Source of the DNA: Hansfordia pulvinata
Taxonomy: Eukaryota > Ascomycota > Sordariomycetes > Xylariales
Direction of reading: 5' to 3'
DNA: 64,000 bases
NCBI GenBank assembly: GCA_006538405.1
Contig: BJKQ01000038.1
Location: 1 to 64,000 of the forward strand
Part shown: piece by piece, positions 6,001-61,249 of the stretch
Position numbering within the stretch: the first letter of the stretch is position 1
Layout of the letters: every line of letters begins with the position of its first letter
Position numbers and translations under genes: made by a program
Notes under the pieces: generated by a model
Told to the model about the DNA's origin: nothing
The model's database searches: none
What the model saw: only the letters and a program-made list of their open reading frames with translations

Positions 6001-9000
6001 TTTTAAGTCAGGCCATTTAATAAATTATAAAAGATAAAAAGTTAAGTAAGATAAAATTGATTTAAATATTAAATGAATTGATAATTTATATAATAATATG
6101 ATAAGTTCAACGAACTATTCTATACCTTTTTTAAGAGCTTTAATAAGTATTATAAGAATTGAAAACAATAAGACTAATTCATAATGGTTTCTAAGTTAAG
6201 TTTATCTAAAAAGGGGTAATTAATAAGGTTGAATAAAAGAAGTAAGTAAATTTACGTGAATTAATATCTCACGTGATTTTGTAGGAATCATCTTTAAGTT
6301 AAGCTTACTTGAATCTGACAATGTAGTACATTAACATCTTTTAAGCTTACGTATAATTAATTCTCTTATTTCAACGTATATTAATTGAAACAAACATATA
6401 TATGCTAAGTATTGTAAACCGCTTAAAATAAAAAGTTCTATATAAGCTTATCTTATATTATACTTATAAAACTTCTGACTATAAAATACATTCCATTAAA
6501 TATAATAACATACAATGTGTTTACTTATATTAAGACTATAAACCTATTTATATTAAGTCTGTTTAATCTTAAGCAAATATATTATATAATATGCTTTAAG
6601 TCAGCAGCTTTAAACTTTAAAACAAAGCTGAAACTTATTAAAAAGCCATGGTCTATCGTTCATCAACTTAAGTCTTAATAAAGTAAAGACCATATAATAA
6701 ATTAAATACATCTTAATCTGTAATATAAAATAAAAGTGGCTGAAAAGGACCACAATAAATTCATAATTTACGAAAACTACGTAAAGTGTAATTAATAAAA
6801 ATGTCACTCACGCAAATAAATAATAAGATAATGAATTTTTAAAATGAAATTCAATTTAAAATAACTCTTATATAAAAAATAGCATTATAAAATAAAATTA
6901 AAATAATTTTTAAACTTTATTAGCTTTAAAGTAATGAGCTTATTTAACTCTTTATAGTTAACGCTTATACTATCTTTTTCAATACGGGTTTTATCAGTCA
7001 TTAATAAACTAATTAAAAGTAATTTACGTAACCGCATATTTTCAAATAGGTTTAAAAAAAATCACTTTTTTTCTTTTAATTTATTACTTACTCGATATCT
7101 TTTTCTTTATTAAACTTTCAATTAAAGTACTTTTAATACAAACTTATAACTTAACTTATTAACCATTCATAAGAAAGGGTTTAAAGTTTATTAAATTATA
7201 AATATCAGTATTTTTAAGTTAAATAAAGAGTCGTTAAAGTCTTATATTTCAAGTTTTTAAGTTGTTATATAGATTTATATACTTACGTACACGATTGAAT
7301 CTTAATAGCATCACAATTCACGGAGTTATATTAAACGAATATTAATTGAAATCTGTTTTCTTAATTTCTTACTTACTACGCTTGAAAATTTAGAAGTATC
7401 TGCTTATACTGATACATTTTCTCTTATTTCGTCGTAAAATAATATGAAAACCTCTATTTTTATTTTGTTTATATCTTGAGATTCATTATACATTAACGTA
7501 TAGTTTATTTAAGGTACATTTTCATTTTTTAGCTTAAAACGTACTATAAGTAAATGTAATATACATATCTTAAAGTTACCGCTTTAAACACTTTATATTA
7601 TTATACTTTCTATTTCATATGTATTTTACTTTAAATAAAATAGTTTATCATTCGATTTAACTATATTAAGTAGTCATAAAATAATGAACTTTACGAATTA
7701 AACTTTTTAATAATAACTTAAAGAAAGACTTCCTGCTTACTCAGTTATAAACGATATTAAAGTACTTTTACTTCTTTAATTTTAAGTAAAATATAATTTA
7801 ATCAACCCCGATATTCTTCACACTTAAAGATTTTTATATAAATTAAGTTTTTAACGATGCTTACGAGAACGAGCTAATATAATAGTATCTTCTTTTAAAA
7901 AGAGAAAGAAGAAAGAATTTTAAAAAACTTTACGCTGCCGTGATTACATGTTATGAAATTATATTAAAAGCTTGCATTTTAAAGAAAGTTAAGAGCTTTA
8001 AACATTTAATAAGTAGAATAATACCTTTTATATACTTACGTTTTCTATTCAGTTTAAGTTCACTTTATTTTACTTAGAATATAAATAAATACTTATAATA
8101 ATAAGAACGATTACTTACATTCCGATATGGAAGCGCGTTCGTATAAGTATTTCTTTTTAATAATTAAAGTAAACTCGGATACCTTTTTAGAAGATGATCC
8201 TCTCTTTAATAGACTGATTCAAAAATACTTATCTCTCTTTATTATAATTTACTGGATTTAAAAGATTTTGAAAGTAGGCTCTATAAGTATATAATAGAAT
8301 TACTTATATTATATAAACTATAAAGTTAAATATTAATTACTTGAAGATTAATCATAGTATTTCAAAAAAAAATTAAAAAATTATATATATTAATTATTTT
8401 TACATTTATTAAATCAATTATCATCGTAAACTATAAACTATAACTATTTAATGAGTTAAATCACACATAAGATTCTTACATATTAAACATATTAATTTAA
8501 GTAAGTTAAATCACGTAAATAAGAATAACTCTTAATTCATTTATAACCTTAATTATATTAAAATATCTTTATTTTCAATTACCTTATTACATTAGGTATT
8601 AAGTAAGACAAGTTTTTAAAGCCTTAAAAGAAAAACAATAAAGCTGCTTTGAACAATGTAAGTATTAATGCAAGTATGCTATTTAAGTATATGATAATAA
8701 GATAATAGTATTTTATCTTAATAAACAATATTAAAGCTTTATATTCTAGTGTTTCTTAATTTATTAATAATCAATGTGATTAATATCTTATATTTTATTA
8801 AGTATTTACACGTGAGTTTACTATTATAAATTTATAACTTTCAAGCTTAATAAAATTTGAAAAAAAAAACAATAGCTTTTAATATATTTGAAAAACATGT
8901 ATTATATAAGCTTCTTAAACTTTTTATTTACGTCTTTAATAAGTTATAATAAAGCAAAGCTTGAAAAGCTGAACATAAATAATTATAATATAATAGATCT

Positions 9001-12000
9001 TTAAAGTAAGGATTAAATTAATCTTATAATTAGATTTTTATAATAATCGCATTGTCTTTTTATTTATAGAAAATGAAATTTGATTATCTTACGTATATTG
9101 ATCTTAAAGAAACTACTTATACTTTATGTATTAATCTTGTTTTAACTTAACAGAAAGAACGTTTAAGTATTAAATGATTGATTTATATTAAAGATTATTA
9201 AGAACTTAATTTAAAATGTGCTAAAACTTTGGTTGTAAAAAGATTTCAGTTCGTAAATAAATTAAGAAAATAAGCTTATAATAATGAATAATCAATTTTA
9301 AGTTATTTTATCAATTTAGAAATAACTCACGTGGCTCGTATTAAATCATTAATAATATCGATTTACGTAATAATAAGTCTTTTTAAATCAACTTCTTAAC
9401 GTATACGCGTTTATTCAATTTCTATATACTTAAGACTTTTTTATTTTAAATTTTATTAAGCTTTAAGGTAAAGTTAAAGCTTAAAATTTTTCAAAGTATT
9501 ATTTTTTTAGGCTTAACTGTTATATATAATTTGAATACATGATATTTGATATAATCGTTTATTAAATTTCAGATTAATAAGATATATTAGTTATATTAAC
9601 ATCATACTTATTACTTTATTAGAAGTGTATCTACAAGCCCTAGGTTTCTTATTTATATAAGCTTTAAAAGCTTATTTATATAAAACATATAGAATTTCTT
9701 TCTTATTACTTCTTAATAAGTATTACTTTATTTATATTAACTTTCCTTACGATACGTATAATGATAATTAACATATGATTTAACTTTAAGAAATATATAA
9801 TACGTGAGTATAGCTTAATAAGTAAGTTATATACGCTCGGGTTAATAAAAACTGATTCTTATATACTTAAATTAAGTAAATAACTTACTTATTTAAGCCA
9901 GCTTATAGGAACTTAATGTTAAGCTTTTATATTCTTTATTAATATAAAAATACTTTACTTTTCAATATTAAGCTTCAATATAAATAATGATATTAATATT
10001 ATAGTTCTTATCATGTAAATGAGTTTATTTAACGGCTGTATTAAATAGTCTTTATTAAAAGATTTGAAGGCTTATATTAAATATTAAATTTAAATATAGT
10101 TTAAACTCACTTTATCGACTCTTTTAAAAGTGTTATACACTTAAAGCCTATAGTAAATAAATGTTAATATGCTTTATCTTATATTTAACCTTATATAATT
10201 ACTTATAATCATACTTAAACGTAACTTTTTTTTTATCAAATATATTATACTTAAACAACACGTGTTAAAGAAGTAAAGAGGCTTCTAAAGCTGCCTTATA
10301 TTCTATAAACTTTATATATTTCATTCTAGGAGTTACGTTATAATTCTTTAAAAGGCACTTATATAACTTAATTACTTAAATAAAGATACGTTAAGGTCAC
10401 GTAAGTTGGGACGGAAGTTATAAACTTAATATAACTCTTATAACGTACTTATAAATCAATATAAGGTTTATCATTTATATTATTAACTTAAATAATAATA
10501 TCAATATGAGCTCGATAATTATGAAAATTAAGTAGGTAACAGTTGAGTTTTAAATAAGAGATTTAACACCTTTAATACCGTAACTTAATATAAAAACGAA
10601 GCTTTGAGTTAATAATTAAACTTAATCATTATTTAATAATAATCTTTTAACTTAACATAAAAGATTTGAATTAAATTTTAGAAGTATATTATATATATAT
10701 ATATCCGTACATTATTCTATATTATAAAAGAAATAAGATTGTTTTGAAAACTTAAGAAAATAAAGCTCGAAAAATAAGATATTGAATTTTTTAAAGGAAA
10801 GTAAGTGATAGTTAATACTAATAAGAATAACGAAAAACAAATGTAAGAATTGTATCAAGAATCTTAATTAAAAAAAAACAAAGCGCTTAAACTTAATAGC
10901 TTAATATCTTATCTTTATCTTTTCTTATTTTATATTATATATTTTGAAGTTTTATTGCATTCTATAATTCCATTATATATATATATAAAATAAAGACATT
11001 GTCTATTAAAAACGACACGATTTCAACTTTATTATATTATAAGCTTTCCTCTTTATTATATATAGTAATATATTTAATTAATTATAATGAATTTCATAAA
11101 AAATAGTATTTACGTTAAACTTAATTAACTTTAATTTAAAGTCATATAAGTACGTATAATACTTATTTAAGCTACGTATATAAGTGAAGTACCGGATCCA
11201 CTTCCCGTGGGCCGGATTATTTAAAGTGAAGTTCCGGATTATTCTGAAAATATGTTTTCTTATAAATATTTTATATAAGTTTATATAATAATCCTTAAAA
11301 ACGTTTATAAAAGAATTTACCTACGGAGTAAATAATAAAAGTATATTATCCTTACTTTATTAAGTTATATATATTATATAATAAACTATAAAAAGTGATT
11401 ATATAATAAATTTACGTATTTATATGTATCGATTAAGTTGAATAAGTACCTTAAAGCAATTTCATTAACTTTTAATAACGTTATCCCGAGGCAGCGAACT
11501 CTTACCTTCCCGTGCATATATTGTTTAATATAAATGTAACGAATTACGATTTCTCGTATTATTATAATATATGTATAGTATTAACTTAAAGCTTTACGTA
11601 TACTATATAAATAAAACCTTTATTAACTTTAATGTTGCAAAAACATTTAATAGTTTAATAAAATATTCATATATACATATATAAAATTACTTAACTTCGA
11701 AATATATATTAATTTAAAATCTTAAGAATATAATTAACGTTAAGTGTATTATAAGTTTTTTTAATAAAGTTAATAATAAGCAATATATAAATTAATGATA
11801 TTATCTTTAAGTATATATCTTTAAATATACGTAAAGATCTTCTTCTCTTATAAATCTATTATAAAAATACGTGATACGTGATAAACGGATATAAACCACT
11901 CGAAAAAGTCTAATCTTTAACTTTTTATAAAGTGTGCAATTTATGTATTATAAGAGTCCTGCTCTTTGAACAGCTTTTACGGGCTTTTATATTACTTATT

Positions 12001-14205
12001 AAGAGTCTCTCATAGTGTATTTACTTTTTACTTTTTAATCTATCTTTTAAAATAAGTCACTTTATTACTTTTTATTACGCGTTAAAATAATAACTTTATT
12101 TAAGTTTACGTAATTAAATAACTATATGAGCTTAGTATTACTATTTATTAATTTATCTTAAAGATAAACCTTAGGATTATTACATATCTCACGCTTTTTA
12201 TATTAAAGACTCTGGGTTTTAAATAAATTTAAATTATATCTTATATAAAAGATTCTTAATAAATACTTTATAATTCAGTAAGCCTATTGATTCAGTATAA
12301 TATTATATTACTTAAGCTTTAACAAAATGTAAATTAATTATAATAAACTTATTTATATACTTAAAAGTAAGATAGCTTATTATTACTTATATATTAACAT
12401 TAAATTTAAAGCTTTTAAATAGTTTTTATAAAAATACTTTACTTAAAAGTTATTTCAAAATTTATATAGTTTATTTATATAAGTTTAAAGCGATAAGTTG
12501 CTTATAATATAAGGTCGGTAGCTTTAAGCTTAATGCTATTAACATCAAAGTTATTATTATTTTTAAAAACTACATTTATTTTATATATCGTTAAAATTAT
12601 AAGGGTTTTACTTATATAAAGCACGTAAATCTTAATTTAATACACGGATTTGAATTTTACAATTTCATAAGATTTATATATTATAATACATTGTTTATTT
12701 ACAATATCATTAAGGTAAAAATATATCATATAAGGTATAATTAATCAACATTATGTAAAATATATAATATTAAATAAACGAATCGTATTAAGTGAACTAC
12801 TTTATATAAAGTAAAATAAGCGATATTAAGTAAACTTCTCTTTATTAAGCAGATTAACTTATTGTTAATAAGTTAAGTTATAGTGAATAAAGTGATTCGA
12901 ATTGTCTTAAGTTAATAAAGTTAACTTATGTTTAATCACTTTTATAATTCTTTTTTAAACTCTTTTTCCTTTTCGTGAAAATTAAGGCTTAACTCTTTAT
13001 AACTCATAAAGTCTTAACTTTATAATATTAATGAATAGTATTACCGTGGTGAAGGCTATTTGATTTTTATCTTTTATAATTATATTACTAATCATAAGAA
13101 ACGTTCGTTTTAATGAAGTGAAAATAACGAGAATTGTTAAATATTGTTTAATTTAAATACGTAAGATTAGAAATTGAAAAGTAATTTATTTATAATAAAT
13201 AAAAAATCGCTTTATTGCAATGTATTAATAATTAAGGTAAGATAAACTGAATAACTTATACTTTAAAAACTTAAGCCTTTATTTCAGTAAGGTTCAGCTT
13301 TATTTCACATGTTTTATATAATATCCCGACTCGATTTCAGTATAATTCGTCGTTTGAATTCGAATTTGAATATTAAAAAATTTGATATAGTATATTAGGT
13401 TTTAATAACTTATTATATTCCGGATTAAAATAATGGATTATACATCTTATATTAATTTATTAATAGCCTATATAAGCTTTCTTATATTAATGTTCTTAGT
13501 AATAAGCGTCACTTTACTTACTTACGTTTTATACTATTTAATAGATCTTATTTGTTTACTTTTTTACGATTTAAAATATTATAATATAAATATATTAATA
13601 ATATTAGTTTTAACGATAATATTTAATTACGCATAACTTTATTAATAAATAATTATAAAATTCAATGAAATAAAACTATATCACGAAAGATAAGACGGAT
13701 TAAAATAAAAAGAGAAATAGTATATTTTCACTTATTTTTCTTTCTCGCTTTTCTTTTTTAAACTTTATTTATTTATAACGACTCACTTTATGTTTTATTC
13801 CTTTTTTACTTATAAACTGTAAGCTAATTCCTCTTTTAGTTCTAATTTCGATATTAATATAATTATAAAATTAAGATTGTATCCTTAAAACCCGTATTAC
13901 AATTATAATAAAGCTATAACATATATTATTCGTTCATTATCTTAGAATATAAGGTATTAATTTCAATAAGCTACGATTTATTACTTACGAAACTTTTTTC
14001 TTTTAAAATATTAAATTTACTTACGTTAATTTATATTTAAACTTTATACTTAAAATCAGTTTGTGCTTCCACGTAAGTTGCCTTAATATTAATAAGATAA
14101 ATAACTTATATAAGTTAAGAAGCGAACTGCACTTACTTAATTAATACTGTTTAAACCTGGTAAATTAAGAATAAGAACACTTTAATAAAATTCTTAAGTA
14201 ATATA
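1..14205. repeat. AT-rich RIP-type relic block, no gene
   Basis: About 14 kb of DNA that is close to four-fifths A+T by eye, full of TTAA, TTATAA and TAAG strings. No open frame exceeds about 67 codons, and those present are composed of Ile, Leu, Tyr, Asn and Lys as expected by chance. No terminal repeats are visible and the left end lies outside the window, so I cannot say which elements it came from. It differs from the blocks at 18-25 kb and 49-56 kb in keeping more TGA and CAA triplets, so it may be older or less completely converted. CACGTG hexamers are unexpectedly common in it. A regional centromere or an old cluster of transposons are both possible. Confidence 0.8.
11182..11239 (+). 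repeat. paired 16-bp GC-containing direct repeat in AT-rich DNA
   Basis: The 16-mer AAGTGAAGTNCCGGAT occurs at 11182-11197 and 11224-11239, differing only at the N position, with a GC-rich spacer that contains GGATCC and CCCGTGGGCC. It stands out in an otherwise nearly pure AT stretch. It could be the edge of a small element or a surviving minisatellite; I see no matching copy elsewhere in the window. Confidence 0.5.
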
Positions 14206-15362
14206 GATAGAACGAGTCCTCGGCCGGCGCGTGGACTGGATCTATCTAATAGGCGGCGATAAGACGCCTAGTGAGTGCGGATAAGTGGTGTAAAAAGGGA
14301 TACAATATAAGTTAAGCTAAGTAAATACCTCCGTAAGACGTAAGGCAGCGCCGCGGCCGCTGGTGCGAGATGGAATTAATAACGTCCACCATAGCAGCGC
14401 ACGTTCGGAGCTATATATCCGTATGACGACATTGACAACCGGCACATGGTCAAGGTCGGCTGCCTTGCGGCGCAACGCGCGGAGATTAACGGAGTCGAAC
14501 GCATCGTTTCGACTTCACGTAAGGAGGGAGGCTTCTCAGTCCTTGTCCAAAGTTACTTCTAAGTCTCGCGTGATTTTGCCAGGAACCTTCGGTTGCGCGC
14601 TGCCTGACCCTGTGTTTTTTCTTCATTGACAATAAGGCCATTAAGCCCACTTGTGGTGCCAAAACAAGCACTAATCAACCCGAAGCTGCTAGAGCGACGG
14701 CAAATCACGCCATAGCGGACTGGTGGCGGGGGGGGTGAAGACATTCGTCAGCCCTTATAAAGAACAATGTTCTCTTATTTGGTCGAGCCGATAATACTAA
14801 GGGGTGGTAAACATCCCGTGGATAGTTCACTCTTACTTAGCTCGAAAGGCCTTCACGACCGCCACTGCGATTCTAAGGACAGATCAGGATCGTTGTACGC
14901 CGTTCACCCGACCATATAAGCCAAGGGCGTGCGGGAGATTATTATAAGATAATCTAGGAACATATGAGCTCTTATTATGTTGATTTGAGAAGACTAGCAG
15001 TCGGTATGCCGCTGACTAGCTCGAAGCGGCAGTGACAAGCTTAATATTAAGAAGAGGAACGAAGATTTCCTCTCGGCTGGTATTCCGACTTGGAGAAGGG
15101 GCACACCGGTGGCTAATCACACCACTCAAAGGGACAAGCTGCCCAGATATCAGTGCAGTAAGACAACTCTTAGAGTATAAGAGGTAAGTTAAAAATTGGA
15201 GATCCGCGTGGATAAAGTAGATAAGTGCGTTAAGGTGCTGTTCTTAGTCATCGGACCCTGAGAGTGCGCCAGGGCGCTATGAGCCGACGGCGTCGTATCC
15301 GCATTACTGTTTATTGCGTTAAGCTGAAAGGGAAGCATCTTGAGGACAAGTATGCGCCGATC

Positions 15363-15695
15363 TCACACGGTGCGCTTAGTGTGGACGAGGGGGTCTATAA
15401 TCGATTGACCCTTCGGAACGGTCGGGACGCTGCGGTGGTCTAAGGCGCCCAGAAATTGGCAAGCGGCATAAGCATCTACGGTATGGGTCCGCAAACTCAG
15501 CGGCATCGGGGTCGATGTAAACGAAGGAGACGGACGGGAGGGCTCCGACGAGGGTAGATGCCAGGACGAATGTGCTGATAGTGTGATGCTGTGGCGCTGT
15601 AACGATGAACGTGCTCTTTCAGCTCTCTTCCGGGAAGCGCCCCTCTGGTAAGTGATATATGGCATGCAGAAGTGATATGGACGCCGCCGGCACAT
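15363..15695 (-). CDS. weak 110-codon open frame
   Basis: An ATG-initiated frame of 110 codons, rich in Arg, Ser, Pro and His. I recognise no domain, no signal peptide and no membrane segment. There is no neighbouring frame to form a gene with it and no clear intron signals. A chance frame in GC-balanced DNA is as likely as a real exon. Confidence 0.12.
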   Translation of the reverse strand: MCRRRPYHFCMPYITYQRGASRKRAERARSSLQRHSITLSAHSSWHLPSSEPSRPSPSFTSTPMPLSLRTHTVDAYAACQFLGALDHRSVPTVPKGQSIIDPLVHTKRTV

Positions 15696-17287
15696 GGGAA
15701 GTGTGGCTTATTTTAACTGGATAAAAGGAAGAGAAAGTAGCCTAAATGATCCCCGAGTTTTTCAAGCTCTCTGTAAGGCTATGCTTACCACTTCGGCGAA
15801 TTCGGCCAGTTTAAGTTGAGGAAGCCTGTGAGCACACTTATCAGCCTATCTATATCTGTAGTAAAGGGCTTAAAAATGACAATACATATATGGTGACAGG
15901 GTCTAGTGTAATAGTAACCTCACGCCACTTAATCATATTTTTAACCGAAAGGCAATCTGCACGGCAACACGACGTCGATTACCTGCTAGTCTTAGCAACA
16001 AAATTAAAGCACTGCTTATAACTAACATAGCAATATTACCCAGGCTGCGTTAAAAAGAGCGGAAGCACGCGCTTAAGAGAAACGCTCTTACGGCTTTCAT
16101 GTTCAAGTTCCCTTTACGCCATTAACTGACCATGGCTAAGATACAGTGGGCTATAAAGATGAGCCCTGCCACCGCAGCAGATACAGAGGCAGGACTAGCT
16201 TATCAAACACCTCGAGTTCAGCGATAAGCGCATCATTCCGGATAACACGACTTACATTATTTAAGAATACGCAAGATCACCTTGTGTATATATTAACCCT
16301 GCGGTTAGTATCTACCTTATCACGGGATCTTTTACAGTTATCTTATCCGTTTTTAAAATATAACGGACTTTTTGTATTAAAGCATCGAAGTGCTTAATTA
16401 CATTTAACCTTGATGATTCGCAAACCAACGATCAATTTCAGGGGCGAAACCAAGCCCAGGGGACGAATAGACCGTTAAAGGAGCCGAGAGTCGGGATGGG
16501 TAAGTGTTTGTAAAGGAAAGGTAAGACGGGTAGTCAGATAAATGCTAAAGTGCAATGTTCATTATCGCTAAGTCGCACACGAATACGCCGGCGGGCAGGG
16601 GGTGGTGCAATTGAACAATCAGCGCTTAAAGCAGGTCCTTAGACTTTAGTATCACCTTAAAGAGGCGGAAGAACTGGCCAGGCCCTGCAGTCAGTTCGCG
16701 TATAAGCACTCCCCTCTCCGTACCTACGGCAAGCCACCTCCCTCCTCTACCTCCCCACCACCTAAGCCAGCAAACCTCCTATACCTGCCTCTAATTAACA
16801 TGTCATTAAAGTCACCGATCTCGTCGAGGATTCGACTGTACTCAAGGACGACGCCAAAACCCTAAGGGGTCAACCACACCAGGTCATGCTTACACGAAGG
16901 TGCAACTGGGTCGGATTCGAAAAAGCAGATTTAAGCGAGGAGGGGGGGTAGATGTGTTAAGTGCTGGGTCTAGGTTACGATACTACCGGCTTGACCGAGG
17001 AGGGGTGAGACCGGCCGAGTGGAAGGGACGATTGTACGGCTGTTGCGTAGTAGACGCGTTCTTTCGTAAAGACGCGTAATGGACGTGTTCCACTTCGACG
17101 CGCGGGGTACATACATGTAGCGACCGAATATGGTGAGGTCCTCCGTCCTGTAGCACCTCGAGGTTTCCCTTCACCCCGACCGACCTTCCCGAGAAGTCTA
17201 ATTATGGATCTCCCTCTCTGCACGTAACATTTACCAATACACCCATTTTCTCATCCCTGCCATTTCTACTCTCTTTTAATAAACTCT

Positions 17288-37313: not shown

Positions 37314-39664
37314 TCACACATCTTGTGGATAGTACGTCCGCCGGTACAAAGAATACGTTTCGAGGTTGCGAGTTTCCAGGTCTTGGCCTTGCTGGTATAG
37401 CTTGTCCGCTCGGGCCCGCAATCTCTCATGCATTCGGGCAACGTCTGGCAGCATTGCTGATGCCGGATACATGTAATAGTGCTCGTAAAGCACCACCTTA
37501 TTATCGCTTTTTACCGGGGTAAACCATCCGCTACCATCACTTAGTTGTGACACCTCATGGTATATCTCCTTAATGGATAGGATTAGCCTGTTGCATTTAA
37601 GCAAAGTATCCTCGATCATTGAAGCAGCCTTGGCCAGGTCGGTAAGATAGGTCTCTAGCAGCTTGGCTTGGGATCTGGTGGACTGTGAGGTAGCCTCCTT
37701 TTGAGCCTGCCGTAGCGAGGCTGAGCTTGGGGCGTCCGCGAGGTGATGCCGAAGAAAGACAGGCCAAGGATGTCTGGCGGTCGACTTGGTGACAGGCCAA
37801 GGATGACTGACGGTCGACTTGGCATGGGTTGGAAGAGCAAGAATACCCTGAGTGCGACTGATCAGAAACTGGAGCGCAATGCTCAACTGCTGTAACTCCT
37901 CAATGTCAGATTCGAGGAATCTCAAAGCCAGCTTCTTCGAGGACATGTGCCGGACAAATGCAGCCGCGGTCTCATTGTAGCTGTGCAGAGTACGCAACTG
38001 GCTCAGGCTAGGCGCTGGTGTGAGTGCGGTCTGCCAGAAGAAGTCGTCGTCTTCAGATGGGTCGCTACTACCAATGTCCCTTCAGATGGTTCACCACTGT
38101 CCCCGTCTGGGTCGCCACCTTGAGACCCGACAGGGTCTTCTGCCTGCGTGTCAAAGACAGCCCATTCTAACGAGGTTCTGACATCGAAGAGCATGTCCCT
38201 CAAGTTCTTCGTCCAGGAGAGGTGGAGCATTGAAGCAACTGATGAAGCTAAGCGCTTTAACGAGTACGCGTCTCGAGACCTGCCCTCGCATGCCTCATTG
38301 TACCTGTTTGAAGGATCATTACACCTATCGTCGTTCAGATCCGAGATGGCCATAATAATACCCTCAAGGTTCCCGTGTGCAATCTCCATAAGACAAGGAG
38401 CGACATCGGTCAGCTCAACTGTCATATTAATAAGATTCCCCGGGAATGGGTGTGGGTGGAAGAACGTGGGTAGAGGGGGTTTGGCCCTCCATTGCAGCCT
38501 TGGCAATTGATCAGTGGAGAGGAGCTCGAGGTGGACAACGAGAAATGCGGTGATTGCGAAGGCTAGAAGACTGAAGCCAATGTGAAAGAGGGTTTGAAGT
38601 TGATATCGATGGCCGCTATTCTCTTCGTCGCTGTCGTGGTTGGTGGAATGGCGGCCCAGATCTCGAACACGGTCGTCATCGCAGTCATGACCCTCGTCAT
38701 CATAATCATGATCCTCATAATCATCAGGCAGACCCAGCGAGCAAGGAGGCGGCGGGAACAGCCGGACATGACTATTGACAGCCTCAACTAGATAATCAGG
38801 CGGCTTAGGGATGAAGCCGCCATCGACCGGCTTTGAAGTGACGTATCCGGTTTCTCCAGTAAAGTGTACTGTGACGGGACAGGCAGGCCGGACATGCCAA
38901 TCACGATGGAATACCAGCTCAATAGGTCGGTAATAATCCTGAGTAGGAGGTGGTGGTGGCAGGTCCGGGCAGAGCTGTACGGTAAAGCGAAGCAGACTGA
39001 AATTATTGTCTTGGCAGTCTTCGCTATCATGATCGTTCCCACGTTCCCGGTCGTCCGAGGGATAATTCAAGCTGATGGTACGGACACGACATGTGGCGGA
39101 AGTGGGAGAAGGTTGCAACCCTGCCGTTGTCGGGGGGTCATCTGCTGATAGCAGCGGTGATGGACTCTGCGGTGGAGGACTCTGCGGTGGAGGACTCTGC
39201 GGTGGAGGACTCTGCGGTGGAGGACTCTGCGGTGGAGGACTCTGCGGTGACTGGCTTGACGATGGCTGGCTTGACGATGGCTGGCTTTGTGGTGACTGGC
39301 TTCGCGATAGCTGGCTTGTATTTATTCTCTGGCTTCGGCTTCGGCTTCCACTATCAATGCCCTCCGTGCCCCCGCCGTTGTCCGGGCTGTGACGCTGGAA
39401 AGGATCGATGTTGATGTCACTAACGAAGTGGTTGCTATCAGGGCTGCCACTGTCGCTGGCATTGTGGATGATTTGATGGTTTTCGGCATTGCCCTGGTCT
39501 CCTGAGCTTGAATACGCAGTTGGTTCGCCGTCAGGGCCTTCTCCCGCACTCTCACGCGCACTTTGACGATGGGTTAGGGAGTGGGCGGCCCGGGCACGGG
39601 CACGGGTCATCGGATGAGGCATGATGACAGCGACTCGAGTCGTAGTCTCTTGCCCGCAAACCAA
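37314..39664 (-). CDS. hypothetical single-pass membrane protein, frame interrupted
   Basis: Two abutting frames on one strand: 39664-38003 (553 codons) and 37997-37314 (227 codons). The second is open from just upstream of 38078, so they overlap and look like one protein of about 780 residues. The join is either a lost base in a short G run at 38078-38080 (C on the plus strand) or a very short intron starting GTAGTA. The N-terminal half is disordered and Ser/Pro/Gln-rich with a PPPQS repeat (residues 139-168). Acidic segments follow, then one membrane helix (about 356-382), then a C-terminal region of long amphipathic helices, probably coiled coil. The ATG at residue 1 is the longest choice; Met15 or Met19 are alternatives. 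The family is not recognised, though fungi have many lineage-specific proteins of this plan. Confidence 0.7.
37758..37823 (-). repeat. 33-bp coding tandem duplication
   Basis: Two copies, 37758-37790 and 37791-37823, encode an 11-residue unit of the form KSTxxHPWPVx in the C-terminal part of the membrane-protein gene. They differ at a handful of bases. Confidence 0.85.
39162..39250 (-). repeat. 15-bp coding minisatellite (PPPQS repeat)
   Basis: Five perfect copies and a partial sixth of GGACTCTGCGGTGGA on the plus strand, reading PPPQS on the coding strand. Diverged CTGGCTTGACGAT-type units that encode a Ser/Gln repeat follow immediately. Open frames on the plus strand here are shadows. Confidence 0.92.
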
Positions 39665-40207
39665 AAGTGGGTGCAGAGATCATGTCGAGCCGTCGCTTAA
39701 ATAAGACGCGGCAGTCAAAACAAAGACGAGGGACGAGTACTGGCCTTCGAGCAGGTATGGTGGCGTTGGCGTTGGCATCAGCCACGAGATGGAAATAGGT
39801 AGTCGGTAGGCAGGTAAGGGATGGTTTCACGAGCCTGAGTGAGACAACCTTTAAGCAGCGCGCGTATTGACGCCACCCTCTTCCCTGTTGCCGAGTCCTA
39901 ACTTAGCACAACGGCAGGGACGGACTCGGAAGCCGAATAAAGGAAGCAAGCAAGTCAAGCTACGGAATTATCCTAAGGGGGAAAAGACACGCCACAGGAC
40001 AAGGTGGATCGCTTCCGGCGACGTAGGTAGCCTGGCGTTCAACCAACTGACCTGACCGTGTATAATAAGATAAGCCTCTGTGGCTGAGTAACGAAGAACT
40101 GTGGTTTTGGACTACTTACTCTGGCTGGAATGCAAGAACCACACGGGGTCAGCATACAAGTCAAGCGAGCACGCGTAATGAACGTTAGATAGGATCCGGG
40201 GGGAGAG

Positions 40208-48574: not shown

Positions 48575-48839
48575 TGATGGGTGGGTGTGTAAGAGAGTGT
48601 AATTATTATTCATTAAGTAAGGGTTATATTAAATAATCCTTAATACTTACCTCCTTTCACACCTTAAGCCGGTCACGTCCTCCTTTATACCGGTGTCCTT
48701 ATTAAAGGTTTATTATAACCTTTTTAAGCCCTCTTATAATATTAAAATCTTTATTAATTTTTATCCCCTTTAAATAAGCCTTTTAACTTTTAATAAGTTT
48801 CCTTTAAATTTCCGATGAACCCTTAATTAACTTATAATA
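48575..48839 (+). repeat. left LTR of the second element
   Basis: Starts TGATGGGTGGGTGTG. Its outer 30 bases are unconverted; conversion increases inward. Confidence 0.85.
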
Positions 48840-54800: not shown

Positions 54801-56104
54801 AATAATAGGCCTTTTTTATAAGTTCTTTATATACTTTTTAAAGTAATCCTTAATAATATATTCTTATTTTTAATATTAATAGTAATAAGCTTATAAGTAT
54901 TGATTTATTAAATATTACTTATTATTATATAAGTTATAATTATAAGTACGTTATAAGGGGTTAAAAGTGTTTTTTCGCGGTTAAAGGGCTGTAAGGGTTA
55001 ATGTTTCTTAACTTAATATTTATTAAGTAAGTCTTATCCTTTATTATAAAAGGTTTATAAAAGGGTTTTTAAAAAGTTTTTAAGATCTTTTAAGGTGTTT
55101 TAAGGTGGTGTTTCTTATTAATAGTTTTATTAATTAAGCCTGTTTATAAAAGGTAAGGTAAGTTTTAAAAATGCCTCTTTTTTAAATTTTAGCCTTTAAA
55201 TCCCTTTATAAATTAATAAAAACGTTAAGGACTTATTAATTTTTATTAATTAATTAAGGGTTTTTATATTTAATAACTTTATAACGGTTAAGGTAATTAT
55301 TAAAGGACTTATTTTCGCTTTATTATAAAGTATAAAGCTTTTTAATAGCTTTAACGTGTTTAAATTATAAGTTAAAGATATTAGCTTTTATTTATATAAT
55401 TAACTTATTTTAAGCGATATTTTTAAGGCTTTTTTAATACTTTAATTTAAGTTTATAAAATTAATATTAATTAATAAACCTTTTAAATAAAACGGTAATA
55501 AAAAGGACCTTTATATACTTTTTTATTACACGGTCCTTATTATATTTATTATAAATTAAGTTTTAATACGTGTTAAAGTTAATAAAAAAACGTTAATATT
55601 TTATTAAAGACTTTTTATTATATAATAAAAGCGGAAGCTTAATACTTTTTAGTAACTTATAAGTTATTTTCGCTTTTTTAAACGTTATAATATAAGAAGG
55701 CTTTAATAAGATTTTAATAAAAGCTTTAAAAAGCGAAATTCTTTTAATTAAATCGTTTTATAAGGTTTAATTACACGCCTTTTTTTAAGTTAATTAAGCT
55801 TAAGCTTATTAAACCTTATAAAAGCGGGTAAGCTCCTTTTTTTCTTTTAAAAAGGTTATTAAAGCCTTATTAAGTAATAATTAAAAGCGCTTTAAAGGTC
55901 CTTTTTTAAGCTAGGTTTTTAAGTTAAGGTTTATTAAGCTTATAAAGGGTTTAAAGCGGGTTTAACTTAAGTTCTTTAATTAATCGATTATTATAAATCT
56001 TAAAAGCGGAGAGTTTAAAGGTTAAGTTAAGTCTTTAATTCGGTTAATAAAATAAGTAATAAAAGGTATTTTAAAATTATTAATATAAAAAAGGTATTAA
56101 TATA

Positions 56105-56369
56105 TAATAAATAAGTGTATAAAAAAGCGTAATTATTATTTATTAAATAAAGGTTATATTAAATAATCTTTAATACTTACCTTTTTTCACGCTTTAAGCT
56201 AATCGTGTCCTTTTTTATATTAATATCCTTATTAAAGGTTCGTTACGACCTCTTTAAGCCCTCTTGTAACGCCGAAATCTTTATTAATTCCCGTCCCCTT
56301 TAAGTGGGCCCCTTAGCTCTTAGCGGGTTTCCCTTGAATTTCCGACGAACCCTTGATTAACTTATAACA
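56105..56369 (+). repeat. right LTR of the second element
   Basis: The inner half is RIPped; about the last 130 bases are unconverted and end CTTATAACA. Confidence 0.85.
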
Positions 56370-56689
56370 CCTTGGCTGAACACCGAGTAAGAGGGCATCA
56401 CTGGACGCGCCTGAGACGGCGGGCCTCGTCATCTTAGGACCCGACACTGAGGACCCCACATCCGACTCCCCGTGCCTGCCCGCGAGCCGCACTCCTTATT
56501 ACGGCCATTTCCCACTCCATCTGCTTTCCTCTTTTAAGATCTTTTAGAGCAGTTAGAGCCAACTGATACACACGTGTGGTCTGGCTCGGTCATCCCCACC
56601 GCCGTCCTTTGAGCCAGGAAAACGACTAATATTAATATTATTTTACCTTATCCACTCGCCTTTTCACAACAAATCTTAACCTCGGAATT

Positions 56690-56872
56690 TTAACAGCACA
56701 TGTCAGTACGGGTGGCCTTTTCAATCTTCGGGAAGTCGACCTTCAACGCGGCGGTCATGTTATCGACGAACATCGCGGGCGTGAAGAAGGCCATCACCAT
56801 GATGCCGTGGCTCAGAGCCGACATCGATCTCGCGACCGAGGAGATCATGAGTAGGGCGGTGCTGCTGATCTA
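56690..56872 (-). pseudogene. possible extension of the polymerase relic
   Basis: After the TAG near 56870 another minus-strand frame stays open to 56690 and is rich in Met, Ala and Phe. It might be the original C-terminus after a frame change. The plus strand is also open here from an ATG at 56701 for 57 codons, so this is only a suggestion. Confidence 0.35.
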
Positions 56873-59800
56873 GTGCCCGTCCTTTGTCATGAACCTCATA
56901 GTCATGCTCGTAGTCTTCTCGCTCTTCAGGGAGGCAGTCGTCAGGAACACGTTGCTCTTGACCGCCGAAAACCTGACCGAGACCGTCGTCGGGTCGGGCT
57001 TCATGCCCTCGCAGTCGCAGTAGACCGTGAGAGCCTTACAGACGGGGCATACGGTCACGTTCACGAGATCGGAGCTTCACACGCACTCCTTAGAGCACAT
57101 CGACAGGTTCTGCATCATCATCGACAGCAGCCCTGTCTCCGAGACCCTCGGCGTCCCGCCCTTGTACCTGCCGCGCGTGGCCTCGTTCGAGTGGACCTCC
57201 GAGCTGGGGCAGTGCTGCTTCAACGAGGGCTTGTGCCTCAAGTGGAGCATCCTCACGATGCCGTAGTTGCACTTAATAGTCCCCACGCTCTTATCCTCCT
57301 CAGAGAACGTGATCTTATCCCCGTTCATCAGGACGTACGCCGCTGGGAGCTCAGGCTCATAATTCATCTCCTCTTGATAAGTCAAGTACGTCTTCGTGTT
57401 ACGCTTCTGGCCAGACCTAAAGGCCTCGATCGAGCCGAACTGGTCCATATAGACCTTCATCTCCCTTACCTGGCCTCCGATCCCGCGGTTCAAGATCTTT
57501 ATGGAGATCAACACGTTGGGCTTAAACTTCTCCCCGGCCTCTACGTTCTTCAATTCGGGCATGTCCTTCGACGGGAAGGGATCAAGGAGCCGACCGTGAA
57601 CTTCAGACCGTGCCAGGTCGATAACTTGTCCCCGGTCTCGAGCTTGGTCTGCCCCACGAAGACGTACGCGTTCATGCCTCCGCTCTTGTTGACGTAAGTC
57701 TCAAGCGCCAACCCGGGCACCGTGGGCCTCCACTAGTCCTGCTTCCAAAGGACGTCCCAGGGCTCGATCTTCCCGCCGTCCTTCGGGAGAGGGTAGTCGA
57801 TGAAGCCGTTCCACGTAACCAGCCGACCTCTGCGTACTCCTTACACACCACGCAGGCGTCCTCCGTGTTCTGCTGCATGTTGATGAAGGCCAACACCACC
57901 TCGCGCCCGGGGACGATAAAGGGCTCCTCGTGGGTGGAATTGCTGGTGGTTATCTCTGCGAACTGCGTCTTTAAGATAGGCTCGCGGTACCCGTTGGCCG
58001 ACATCGTAGACTAGCCCTTGGTCGGAAGGGCACACAAGCTCTGCTTCATCATCCCGACCCTCGGCCAGTCCTGGGCTCTGTGTTGAACCTGTAGAACGGG
58101 ATCATCAACGTGGCAGAGGAGGCCATCTGCGAGGCCTCCGCGTAGATGTGAGGGAACTTCTTGCGGATGAACTTCATCGTGTCGGAGTGATAGACGCACA
58201 TGATGTCGACGCCATAGGGCTCTTTATGGAGAACTGATCGTTGTTCATATCCAACCTCACCGGCCTTATAACGTTCCCCGAGCTCACGGACAAGTTGGCT
58301 ACCTTGCGCTTGATGAATATGAGCATCGTCGGTATGTTGTGCTCGCAGTACCTGGCCTAGGACCTGCTGATCGACACTATGTCTTCGTAGGCGATCAGCG
58401 TGGTGTAGCATATACACCTCAGCACCCAGCCCGAGCCCATGGCCGAGTTGTTCTTAACGTTCGCTAGGATCTCCTCGGCGATCTCCACCGCCCGCTCGGT
58501 TATGATCCTCACCGATGTCCCCGCCACCATGGTCCTGATCCTCCCGGCAGCTTTCGACTAGGGCGTGTAGTACGGGTCGTGGAACCCCTTGTGGTACGGC
58601 AAGCAGACGCTCTGCTTTGGCGTGCACTTATCGTCGTTCTCTGCGTATATCTTTACGGATACGATGGAATTGTTCTCGATGAGTCCCATGGTGGTGAAGA
58701 GGCACGATATGGTCTCTACAGGCTTATAAATGGTCCTTTAAAAGTCGCTGCGGTTCGTATGGTAGGTCGCCTTTAACGTGGCGATGTTGTACACGTATAA
58801 GGGCCGTGCTCCGAATAGGGCATCGTGGACCTTAACAAGTAGCGATTAATAGGGTACTTCAAGACCACATCGTTGTCCGGGTGCAGGAACATCCACTTAA
58901 GGTCGTTGCCCTTCCTCGTGCTTACCATGTTCTTGAACGAGTCAACCCCGCAGTGCATGTACTCGAGCTCGCATACGACCAACTGCTTTTACGACTCCTC
59001 GTCTGCAGTCATCGTACACTCATGCCCGACCAGTGAGGGCATCGCGCACATCCCGTACATGGCGCCGGTGGACTCCTACTGCATATCGACCTCCGGCGAC
59101 GAGTCGTCGATGGACAACGAGCCCCCAACCGACGGTGTTCCCAACTGCCCTCCCGTGCCATCACGGCGGAAGAGGCTGCGGCAGAGGAAGCGGCATGGGA
59201 GGACCGGCCGGTAAGCCCGTCCCCGCAGGCGGTGGTGGCGGCGACCGCGGCAGTCAGCTCCGAGCCCTACTACCGTCCCCCGGCGAGGGCGAGTGGGCAC
59301 AGCCCGTCGACACCTTCCGCTCCGCCTACCGGCCCGTCCCGGCGCGCTGGCGCGACAGCGAGATCCTGCGCCTCCTGCGCCTGCACGTCCGCAGCCGAAG
59401 CGCCGACACATCGTCGTTGTCGTCGTCGTCAATCCACTGTTTCGATACAGCTGGAAAATAACAAAGTAAGGACAAGAAGGATGACGACCTTCCTGGCGGC
59501 CTTCTTATTATCTCGATGCTTCACCTCTAGGCCCCGAACTTGTCGTGACACCTCCTTTCTTCTACATGCCGATCTCATGCGATCCTCACCTTATACCTGC
59601 TTACTACCTAATCGAGTCGATTCCGATCCTTACATCCGGCGGTTTCTCAAGTGTGCCATTTCTCTCAGAGGCCCTGGTGTCTTACAGGTGCGCATCCGCT
59701 CAACAGGATGTTTCTTCTAAACACAACCCAGAGCTTCGTCGCGCACATCGACACGTAATTAACCACCATCCCGAACATGCATAAGAGAATAATAAGAGAT

Positions 59801-60620
59801 CCAACTCGGTTATATCTATACGAATCCCTTATCGTCCAGTTCATGTTTAAGCCCGTGCCGTAAAGCCTGGCCGGGATCGCCTTTCCCAGCCGTCTGATCG
59901 GCTACGGGGTAGGATGTAGAATCGCCTCGGGGCCGTCTTTATAGCGGTGATGATAGACCTCGGGATTGCTCTCACGTCCTTCTATTACGTTATTCCGGTT
60001 CTATATCTTGAGTTCCGACCTTAATAACGCGGCCTAGGTCAACTAAAGCATTTCCATCTCCCTCGCCACTCTCGTCACCGTCCCGTCACCAACAGGAGCC
60101 CGACCTAGGTCGCCGGGTAAACATATTAATCGTCTCGGCGATGCTCTCATAATAGTCGCACCCAGCCGCATTAAAAGTGTAGTTTATCGTTAAGGCCATG
60201 TCCCTATATCAGCTGCGCTTATGATCAGATTATCCTACCATCCTTTAAATGCCCTCCTTCTTATGGTCATGTTTCCGTAGCCATCGTGATTAAAGATTGA
60301 CTTGTTTCTGGTTTAAGCACCCTAAGTTAAGCAGGAATTCTTCTTATATAGTCTATGTTCCTTTCCTTAAATCTTATGTCTTATTAAATGTGGGTGCACA
60401 CATTTCGTATCTTCGGGGCCGCTCTTAAAGGCATGCCTATAATGTCGTATGTGCCGTGCCTGAAGTCCCACTCTTGACTTTTCTCGCCGTTATGAACATT
60501 TAATGTAACAACTGTCTCGACTTGAGTAGCTATATCCGCCGTCCCAAATGTGTGGCAAATTAAGCCACGATACTTATTACATCTCGAGCTCGATAAGACA
60601 GCCATTTCGAAACCATACAT
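56870..60620 (-). pseudogene. RNA polymerase second-largest subunit (RPB2/beta-like), frame-broken relic
   Basis: Family members form half of the active-site cleft of multisubunit RNA polymerase. On the minus strand the family landmarks come in order but in shifting frames. These are a lobe-like block ending GMPLRAA (60384-60620), RDSYRYNRV of the fork (59803-59829), a region resembling the ETPEG block (58773-59090) and SSGNVIRP (58261-58284). Then IPFYRFNTEPR (58071-58106), MMKQSL (58036-58063), NTEDA (about 57850-57905), GDKL with HGLK (57601-57640), DMPE, NRGIGGQVREM, GG with RVSE, and a zinc site CPVC with CDC (57011-57049). The acidic pair and both conserved lysines remain. The last 231 codons share one frame with one TGA. 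Several stops are one transition from Trp or Arg. Divergence from nuclear Pol I-III suggests a viral-type or plasmid-type source (inference). Confidence 0.85.
59100..59650 (-). other. GC-rich low-complexity stretch within the relic
   Basis: Between the fork block and the ETPEG-like block lies about 550 bp of GC-rich sequence with TCG trinucleotide runs near 59410-59430. In every frame it reads as Arg/Gly/Ala/Pro-rich low complexity. I find no polymerase landmark in it. It may be an insertion or a hypervariable linker. Confidence 0.5.
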
Positions 60621-61249
60621 TTAGCATGTTCGCGAATAACATGGATTCGATCAATAAAAGATCTTAGCGTTGTGGAAGCAACGATAACATATACAAATAT
60701 ATTATAAAACTTAAACTTACCGCTCGTTTTCAGCGGACAGGCGTTAGGCATCGAATCGCAATGTGTTCACGTCGGGTTCTGACCCCGCGATAACGGTTAA
60801 CAGGCACCATGATTAAGTTGCTGTCCGCTTAAGAGGCGCAACTATACCTGTGCGATATCCATACGCGTCAGCTGGATTTCGGCCACAGCCATAAGACCAG
60901 CCTTAGTAGAATACATTAAACGGATAACGATGATGATCATAACGGCTTGTATCCCCGAGAGGAAGGGTTATGTGGAGCGACCACACAGGAACACACAAAA
61001 AGCACCACTAGGACACCATCACCGGAGCACCGGCCCTCGTCCTTGGCTATAATTGAGTTGATTCGTTGGTTTCTTTTCTCCTTCTTTGCTTTTCCTTAAC
61101 ATTCTGCTATGACCTTAGGGTCTTCCGATAAGGGTCTAGGCTGTTTATTCCCTGGCCTCCTTATACCTGAACCCTCGTGTAACACATAGTATGTCAGGCC
61201 GTGAGGAGGCTCTTCTGTCCTTATTCGTACATGACAGCTCCCGTTAACA

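What the first reader, a model, noticed from the sequence alone, without database searches (positions are those of the whole stretch)
56690..60620. Captured and decayed RPB2/beta-type RNA polymerase subunit, unlike the nuclear ones
Seen: about ten family landmarks in correct order on one strand across 3.9 kb, in several frames. Known: RPB2-family proteins carry an acidic E-D pair, a K...HGxK pair, a DMP block and a C-terminal zinc ribbon. Here these read NTEDA, GDKL with HGLK, KDMPE, and CPVC with CDC. The nuclear Pol I, II and III versions have GDKF/L, SRHGQKG and DMPF, so this copy is distant from all three. Inferred: it came from a DNA virus of the nucleocytoplasmic type or from a linear-plasmid-like element, and its presence in a RIP-capable ascomycete would be notable.
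Basis: partly seen in the sequence, partly recalled or inferred. Interest (0 to 1): 0.9.

Follow-up and report, generated by a model that had tools for sequence, protein, structure and literature searches.

The report
Dead RNA polymerase gene from mobile DNA
Near a chromosome end of a fungus lies a broken copy of an RNA-polymerase gene that resembles not the fungus's own polymerases but those of a little-known family of small DNA elements, one intact member of which was sequenced along with the same fungus.

Summary
One RPB2-like gene of about 811 codons lies on the minus strand at about 59,130-56,690, in six reading-frame segments with nine internal stops. A profile of 33 relatives matches six pieces in order (E 1.3e-8 to 6.1e-3); reversed and shuffled controls give nothing better than E 3.

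The source is neither host Pol I/II/III nor, on the evidence here, a nucleocytovirus. It is a compact (~790-aa) RPB2 family found on contigs mostly of 20-36 kb, the few named ones mainly fungal, many also carrying a B-family DNA polymerase. Contig C46 of the same assembly is an intact, circularly reading 27,085-bp member with RPB2, RPB1, PolB, a capping-type enzyme and helicases. In unrooted trees the relic is separated from conventional RPB2s (support 100) and attaches just outside the family: a deep, distinct lineage.

Third codon positions are 84% G+C with host-like codon usage, so it died after a long functional life in a GC-rich setting. It lies about 30 kb from a telomere in RIP-type AT-rich DNA.

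The parts
56690..59130 (-). RPB2-like relic, about 811 codons in six frame segments, 9 internal stops (6 TAG, 2 TAA, 1 TGA) and 5 frame changes; the codon at 56,690 is a TAA taken as the terminal stop
   Evidence: GC3 phase scan (segment limits set by eye) and stop count
58791..59130 (-). N-terminal coding track (phase 0), no detectable sequence similarity; 2 stops
   Evidence: GC3 periodicity only
58561..58737 (-). piece matching family profile 171-204 weakly
   Evidence: E 5 alone, but in order with its neighbours; tblastn of P0002 spans 58,809-58,183, E 6e-4
58360..58557 (-). piece matching profile 226-288
   Evidence: E 7.1e-6
58177..58356 (-). piece matching profile 298-340
   Evidence: E 1.7e-3
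57675..58010 (-). piece matching profile 410-475; holds the NTEDA acidic pair
   Evidence: E 1.3e-8
57553..57732 (-). piece matching profile 530-565; GDKLSTWHGLK (the two lysines conserved in the family)
   Evidence: E 6.1e-3; PF00562 E 0.046
57080..57700 (-). 207-aa open piece matching profile 572-726; SKDMPE ... GRYKGG
   Evidence: E 6.9e-8; used alone in two of the three trees
56873..57076 (-). C-terminal zinc ribbon CPVC ... CDC, profile 731-767
   Evidence: E 6e-4
56690..56869 (-). C-terminal extension in the same frame, GC3 about 0.86-0.88; no match to relatives
59198..59405 (+). fragment 79% identical to a host locus on C3 (strand and identity read from recall: last exon of an SDH5/SDHAF2-like gene), just upstream of the relic; not part of the RPB2 gene

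Best explanation
It is a dead, nearly full-length gene for the second-largest subunit (RPB2) of the RNA polymerase of a small autonomous DNA element, stranded in the host's nuclear DNA. Such elements (here C46: a 27-kb circularly reading dsDNA with its own DNA polymerase, RPB1, RPB2, capping-type enzyme and helicases) presumably copy and transcribe themselves outside the nucleus (inferred). A piece of a related but distinct, GC-rich element entered a subtelomeric repeat region next to a fragment of a host gene (inferred). The protein once worked as a polymerase subunit: the lysine pair, acidic pair and zinc ribbon are kept, and codon positions 1 and 2 stay at 0.43/0.41 G+C while position 3 is at 0.84 (shown; function inferred). 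It then lost function: nine stops and five frame changes (shown). It is not expected to do anything now. The island is not RIP-biased (shown), probably because the gene is single-copy (single match shown, reason inferred).
For: Six collinear profile matches with clean controls. tblastn of 64 queries (60 family, C46, 3 host) against the island: 26 hit at E <= 0.01, C46 among them and no host, best linked E 7e-14. Length of the coding track (811 codons) fits the family's 781-850 aa. A profile of 10 conventional RPB2s gives E 0.086 at best. Three unrooted trees on single pieces: conventional RPB2s are split from window + family with support 100 and a branch of 1.6-2.7, while the family is split from window + conventional by a branch of 0.45-0.67, support 92, 74, 88. 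Intact family member in the same assembly. Another member in a cluster with a 19.7-Mb contig of Blumeria (P0034), so nuclear copies seem to occur elsewhere. No second relic found in the genome.
Against: Identity is low: 15.9-25.8% (median 21.3) to 57 family members over one piece and 17.1-28.6% (median 21.4) over another, against 15.6-20.0% to the hosts, so raw identity hardly separates the groups; the case rests on the profile, the collinearity and the trees. The trees are unrooted with a long window branch (2.4-3.2), so 'sister of the family' depends on the root and long-branch attraction is possible. Only this one gene is found; no other element gene was seen in C38. GC3 of 0.84 is unlike C46 (0.37). 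The first ~110 codons show no similarity. No reads were available to exclude local assembly errors, or to show that C46 belongs to this fungus rather than to a contaminant.
Confidence: 0.8

Rival explanations
1. A domesticated gene: the element's RPB2 was captured long ago, served the fungus as a nuclear gene with host codon usage for a long time, and was lost only recently in this strain or species.
For: Codon usage over the six pieces correlates 0.84 with three host polymerase genes and 0.11 with C46; GC3 0.84-0.85 against 0.37 in C46 and 0.76 in the host genes. The divergence is too large to be due to decay, since codon periodicity is intact.
Against: Two protein searches found no closer relative than about 26-29% over single pieces; no partner RPB1 found (a weak test that did not even find the host's own RPB1s). 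A GC-rich element would give the same codon usage.
Confidence: 0.25
2. A relic from a nucleocytovirus or from a yeast-type linear killer plasmid.
For: Such viruses and plasmids carry RPB2-type genes, and a nucleocytovirus-like region lies in Rhizophagus (PMC10640383, abstract and passages seen). The C46 RPB2 model aligns with nucleocytovirus and poxvirus RPB2s, but equally with cellular ones.
Against: A profile of 7 IMG/VR + 3 host RPB2s gives E 0.086 at best, the element-family profile six matches down to 1.3e-8. The tree with 7 IMG/VR RPB2s splits them from the window with support 100. Those seven frames are 950-1,490 aa, longer than the relic.
Confidence: 0.1
3. A decayed duplicate of host Pol I, II or III.
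For: Same superfamily; host genes share the GDK...HGQK and DMP blocks.
Against: Host-containing profile nearly blind; no host hit among the tblastn rows (where the Pol II query was the wrong exon); support 100 for the split from hosts in three trees.
Confidence: 0.01
4. A living gene, its stops and frame changes being assembly errors or recoding.
For: Coding periodicity is almost perfect and 6 of 9 internal stops are TAG, a codon that some fungi edit (recalled).
Against: Five frame changes plus nine stops; long intact reading frames elsewhere in the same assembly (C46; a host frame of 1,041 aa). A TAG excess is what codons ending in G would give.
Confidence: 0.04

Closest known systems
RPB2 of the C46-type DNA elements (unnamed; P0035 Aspergillus hancockii BBP40_010724, P0039 A. 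insuetus BJX65DRAFT_291230, P0034 Blumeria BgtA-21553, P0031 labelled Quercus suber)
   Same: compact ~790-aa RPB2, same motif order, spacing and C-terminal zinc ribbon; six pieces match its profile
   Different: at most 26-29% identical over single pieces; GC3 0.84 against 0.37 in C46; about 90 codons beyond the last matched position, where relatives have about 20; broken
Yeast cytoplasmic linear plasmids / virus-like elements (pGKL2)
   Same: small fungal dsDNA elements with their own multisubunit-type RNA polymerase, capping enzyme and helicase (PMC6211774, abstract parts and passages seen)
   Different: linear with terminal proteins and terminal inverted repeats, about 74% AT (same passages); C46 reads as a circle, has separate RPB1 and RPB2 genes and a PF00136-type polymerase. 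No direct sequence comparison made
Endogenous nucleocytovirus region of Rhizophagus irregularis
   Same: viral-type PolB, RNA polymerase subunits and capping enzyme inside a fungal genome (PMC10640383, abstract and passages seen)
   Different: 1.5 Mb, Asfarviridae-related; here one gene, from a ~27-kb element family, in an ascomycete-like host (recall)
Nuclear RPA135 / RPB2 / RPC2
   Same: same superfamily and active-site blocks
   Different: solved chains are about 1,100-1,300 aa, 15.6-20.0% identical, split off with support 100

Membership tests
RPB2/beta subunit superfamily | GDK...HGxK lysine pair, acidic pair, DMP block and zinc ribbon in order | tested here: met
RPB2/beta subunit superfamily | match above the Pfam RPB2_6 cut-off | tested here: not met
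   13.3 bits against 23.4 on the best piece; the intact relative C46 passes with 65.1 bits
C46-type element RPB2 family | collinear match to the family profile over most of its length | tested here: met
   6 pieces, positions 226-767 of 788
C46-type element RPB2 family | compact length of about 780-850 aa | tested here: met
   811 codons by periodicity
C46-type element RPB2 family | position inside the family in a tree | tested here: not met
   just outside all members; split {family}|{window + conventional} support 92, 74, 88
C46-type element RPB2 family | nearer to the family than to conventional RPB2s in a tree | tested here: met
   stem to the family 0.45-0.67, to conventional RPB2s 1.6-2.7, split support 100; unrooted, long window branch
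C46-type element RPB2 family | accompanied by PolB, RPB1, capping enzyme | tested here: not met
   none found in C38 or elsewhere outside C46
Nucleocytovirus RPB2 | grouping with viral-contig RPB2s | tested here: not met
   7 IMG/VR RPB2s in the tree (taken as nucleocytoviral, not checked); poxvirus and asfarvirus sequences not in the tree
Yeast linear-plasmid ORF6 | sequence similarity to ORF6 | not tested
Host Pol I/II/III paralogue | position inside the host clade | tested here: not met

The most novel reading that the evidence does not exclude
Ascomycetes carry a widespread, undescribed family of autonomous dsDNA elements of some 20-36 kb (viruses or virus-like plasmids) with their own replication and transcription machinery, one of them intact beside this very genome (C46); the window relic is the nuclear trace of a second, deeper, GC-rich branch of that family, kept functional with host-like codon usage until recently.
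Probability: 0.5. Interest if true: 0.9.

Novelty: new variant of a known kind. Interest (0 to 1): 0.75.

Why it matters
Two papers state that no dsDNA virus of fungi is known or has been isolated (PMC10640383, abstract, 2023; PMC11355518, passages, 2024). This relic plus the intact C46 element in the same assembly point to a family of fungal DNA elements with a full transcription apparatus and nuclear traces, which can be tested in a living culture. Ten literature searches showed no description of it in their listings; beyond the listings I saw passages of three papers only, and the library lacks most subscription papers and bioRxiv.

Tried and rejected
Pfam on 30 window ORFs in three calls: 10 RPB2 pieces and 20 others, 4 of them from this island and 16 from the other islands: nothing above cut-off. 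Rfam: no match at gathering scores. Scans of IMG/VR for the window piece, C46 RPB2 and alignment A1: no relative. Plasmid and phage records: no match for C46 RPB2. PDB search of the 207-aa piece: none. PF03175 over the genome: nothing, and its control rang nowhere, so it says nothing. Host Pol duplicate: rejected. Structure of C46 RPB2: mean pLDDT only 63.7; Foldseek finds RPB2s of every kind, so it confirms the fold but does not choose a lineage. Capsid genes in C46: Pfam on 20 of 25 translated ORFs and PHROGs and NCBIfam on 10 each gave no capsid hit; one ORF matches a phage tail tape-measure family (E 7e-5), which I take for coiled coil. This does not show absence. In one search the host Pol II query was by mistake its N-terminal exon; searches use the C-terminal exon. 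One search was an error (that tool takes no alignment for this genome); the question was then asked with the single protein P0039. The support values printed come from re-rooted trees; one search is wrong on supports, read from the trees as written, replaces them.
Full report
OBSERVATION. The window is G000:C38:1-64,000; C38 is 89,114 bp of a 46.8-Mb, 63-contig genome. It is an AT-rich plain (mostly 15-22% G+C) with islands near 50%. The island at about 56.2-61.3 kb holds the finding. Pfam is almost blind to them: of 10 pieces, one gives PF00562 at E 0.046, 13.3 bits against a cut-off of 23.4; the only other row is a chance-level one on the 207-aa piece.

WHAT IT MATCHES. A genome-wide PF00562 search gave three strong host genes (C4, C18, C8; read by me from recall as Pol III, II and I) and two matches inside one open frame on contig C46. 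C46 carries an intact 789-aa RPB2 whose tblastn match to the window is E 6.6e-9. A protein search with it found 34 relatives, 34-61% identical. A second search, with the most divergent relative plus six separate window pieces as rows, found 28, two of them already known (P0033, the first row itself, and P0016), among the rest proteins of Aspergillus hancockii and A. insuetus. Of these 60 proteins 56 are 781-850 aa; four are shorter (P0024, P0034, P0059, P0060). Most have no source name; the named ones are two Aspergillus, Blumeria and one labelled Quercus suber. A profile of 33 members matches six window pieces: 58,557-58,360 (positions 226-288, E 7.1e-6), 58,356-58,177 (298-340, 1.7e-3), 58,010-57,675 (410-475, 1.3e-8), 57,732-57,553 (530-565, 6.1e-3), 57,700-57,080 (572-726, 6.9e-8), 57,076-56,873 (731-767, 6e-4); a seventh, 58,737-58,561 (171-204), is E 5 alone but in order. 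These six are all matches below E 1 among 1,700 pieces; the best control values were E 3 and 4. A profile of 10 conventional RPB2s (3 host, 7 from IMG/VR) listed three pieces, at E 0.086, 1.6 and 5, the first two inside the gene. tblastn of 64 queries against the island hit with 26, C46 among them and no host (the Pol II query there was the wrong exon).

ANATOMY. Third-position G+C shows a coding track from about 59,130 to 56,690 with one position at up to 0.94 against about 0.45 for the others, changing phase near 58,790, 58,205, 58,060, 57,805 and 57,593 (limits set by eye). In those phases there are 811 codons and ten stops, the last at 56,690 taken as terminal; nine are internal: six TAG, two TAA, one TGA. 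G+C by codon position is 0.43/0.41/0.84. Over the six matched pieces codon usage correlates 0.84 with three host polymerase genes and 0.11 with three C46 genes, largely a matter of GC3. The low identity to relatives is therefore not mainly due to decay; the gene evolved under coding constraint for long and was broken later (inference). The longest open run (207 aa) alone is only mildly unusual for this composition (33 of 2,000 Markov sequences reach it), so the case rests on the profile matches and the periodicity, not on open-frame length.

SURROUNDINGS. At 59,198-59,405 there is a 79%-identical copy of a host piece on C3, which I read from recall as the end of an SDH5/SDHAF2-like gene on the plus strand. 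60,989-61,249 is 83-84% identical to a stretch on C9, and 56,100-56,370 is a repeat with ten further matches in the genome. Four AT-rich stretches have TpA/ApT 1.24-1.48 and (CpA+TpG)/(ApC+GpT) 0.15-0.59, a RIP-type signature; 56,700-59,000 has 0.83 and 0.95. C38 ends in TTAGGG repeats, so the relic is about 30 kb from a telomere. No other element gene was found in C38:1-82,000 by tblastn or phmmer of 25 C46 proteins or by 52 PolB relatives, nor in C38:82,001-89,114 by tblastn of the same 25; phmmer rows other than RPB2 start at E 0.15. In the whole genome, RPB1 and D5-type helicase searches return C46 only, PolB also three loci that I take for the host's own polymerases, and the capping-type search one further chance-level row.

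THE INTACT RELATIVE C46. Its bases 1-9,000 recur exactly 27,085 bases later, and 9,001-15,824 at 99.94%; its last part is an inverted repeat of itself, 99.3% over 3.8 kb. So the contig reads more than once round a 27,085-bp unit with a fold-back end, most simply a circle or head-to-tail concatemer plus a read artefact (inference). Encoded: RPB2 (PF00562, E 8e-18), RPB1 (PF00623, E 0.0024; PDB beta-prime chains, E 1e-6), PolB (PF00136, E 3e-39; PF03175 only E 0.005), a long ORF with a TFIIS-type zinc ribbon (E 2e-7), a weak methyltransferase match (E 0.003) and a KPDG motif (capping-type, by recall), a P4/D5-type helicase (TIGR01613, E 4e-10, below its cut-off), PIF1 (E 6e-34), RNase H (E 1e-27), NADAR (E 5e-26) and a weak uracil-DNA-glycosylase match (E 0.003). 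No capsid match was seen among the ORFs searched. PolB relatives number 52 above a clear score gap, and 18 of these 52 share the exact longest-contig length with an RPB2 relative, so the two genes probably sit on one contig there (counted by eye). One RPB2 relative (P0034, Blumeria) lists a 19.7-Mb contig, so a nuclear copy probably exists there too.

PLACEMENT. All trees are unrooted and hold one window piece each. (a) 207-aa piece, 169 columns, 61 sequences (56 family, C46, 3 host, window); (b) 58,010 piece, first 70 residues, 61 sequences; (c) 207-aa piece, 153 columns, 39 sequences (28 of the 57 family members chosen to span it, 3 hosts, 7 IMG/VR, window). In all three the window sits on the stem between family and conventional RPB2s: the split conventional | window + family has support 100 and a branch of 2.66, 1.58 and 2.09; the split family | window + conventional has 92, 74, 88 and a branch of 0.67, 0.45, 0.49. 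So the window is not inside the conventional group, lies just outside the family, and is nearer to the family. Identity to the 57 family members is 15.9-25.8% (median 21.3) in (a) and 17.1-28.6% (median 21.4) in (b), to the hosts 16.8-20.0% and 15.6-18.8%. Of nine IMG/VR loci, L052 was not used, L051 was dropped for length, and L045/L046 are near-duplicates; their nucleocytoviral nature is assumed. No yeast linear-plasmid, poxvirus, asfarvirus or archaeal sequence was in the trees.

MECHANISM AND JUDGEMENT. Most likely (0.8) the locus is a dead RPB2 gene of a deep branch beside this element family, captured into a subtelomeric repeat zone. Shown: homology, order, length, frame damage, codon signature, place. 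Inferred: extranuclear life of the source, way of capture, and a GC-rich source element rather than a period of domestication (about 2 to 1). It has no expected present function.

LITERATURE. PMC10640383 (abstract and passages): no dsDNA virus that infects fungi known to date. PMC11355518 (passages): none fully molecularly characterised, none isolated. PMC6211774 (abstract parts and passages): yeast linear elements carry a two-subunit polymerase whose origin lies close to poxviruses. Ten searches showed no description of C46-like elements in their listings.

Noticed in passing
G000:C46 (L006-L010): Intact circularly reading 27,085-bp DNA element with its own PolB, RPB1, RPB2, capping-type enzyme, helicases, RNase H and NADAR, in the same fungal assembly; no name found for it.
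   Followed up: partly
P0034 (Blumeria graminis f. sp. tritici BgtA-21553): A 555-aa relative of the C46 RPB2 whose row lists a 19.7-Mb contig, i.e. probably another nuclear copy, in a powdery mildew.
   Followed up: no
L007:4388-5866 and L009:1959-2843: Two C46 ORFs (492 and 294 aa) look like relatives of each other by eye and match no family strongly.
   Followed up: no
59198-59405: 79%-identical fragment of a host locus on C3 just upstream of the relic.
   Followed up: partly
56100-56370 and 48585-48837: Multi-copy AT-rich repeat (ten further matches, on C61, C1, C6, C35, C10, C16 and in this window).
   Followed up: no
37314-39679: Two long minus-strand open frames (255 and 558 aa) with a possible membrane segment and no Pfam match above cut-off; probably a host-specific gene.
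   Followed up: no
L053, last ~75 bases (C38 end, 89,114): Contig ends in TTAGGG telomere repeats.
   Followed up: yes
P0031: A C46-type RPB2 is deposited as Quercus suber; presumably from a fungus in the oak sample.
   Followed up: no
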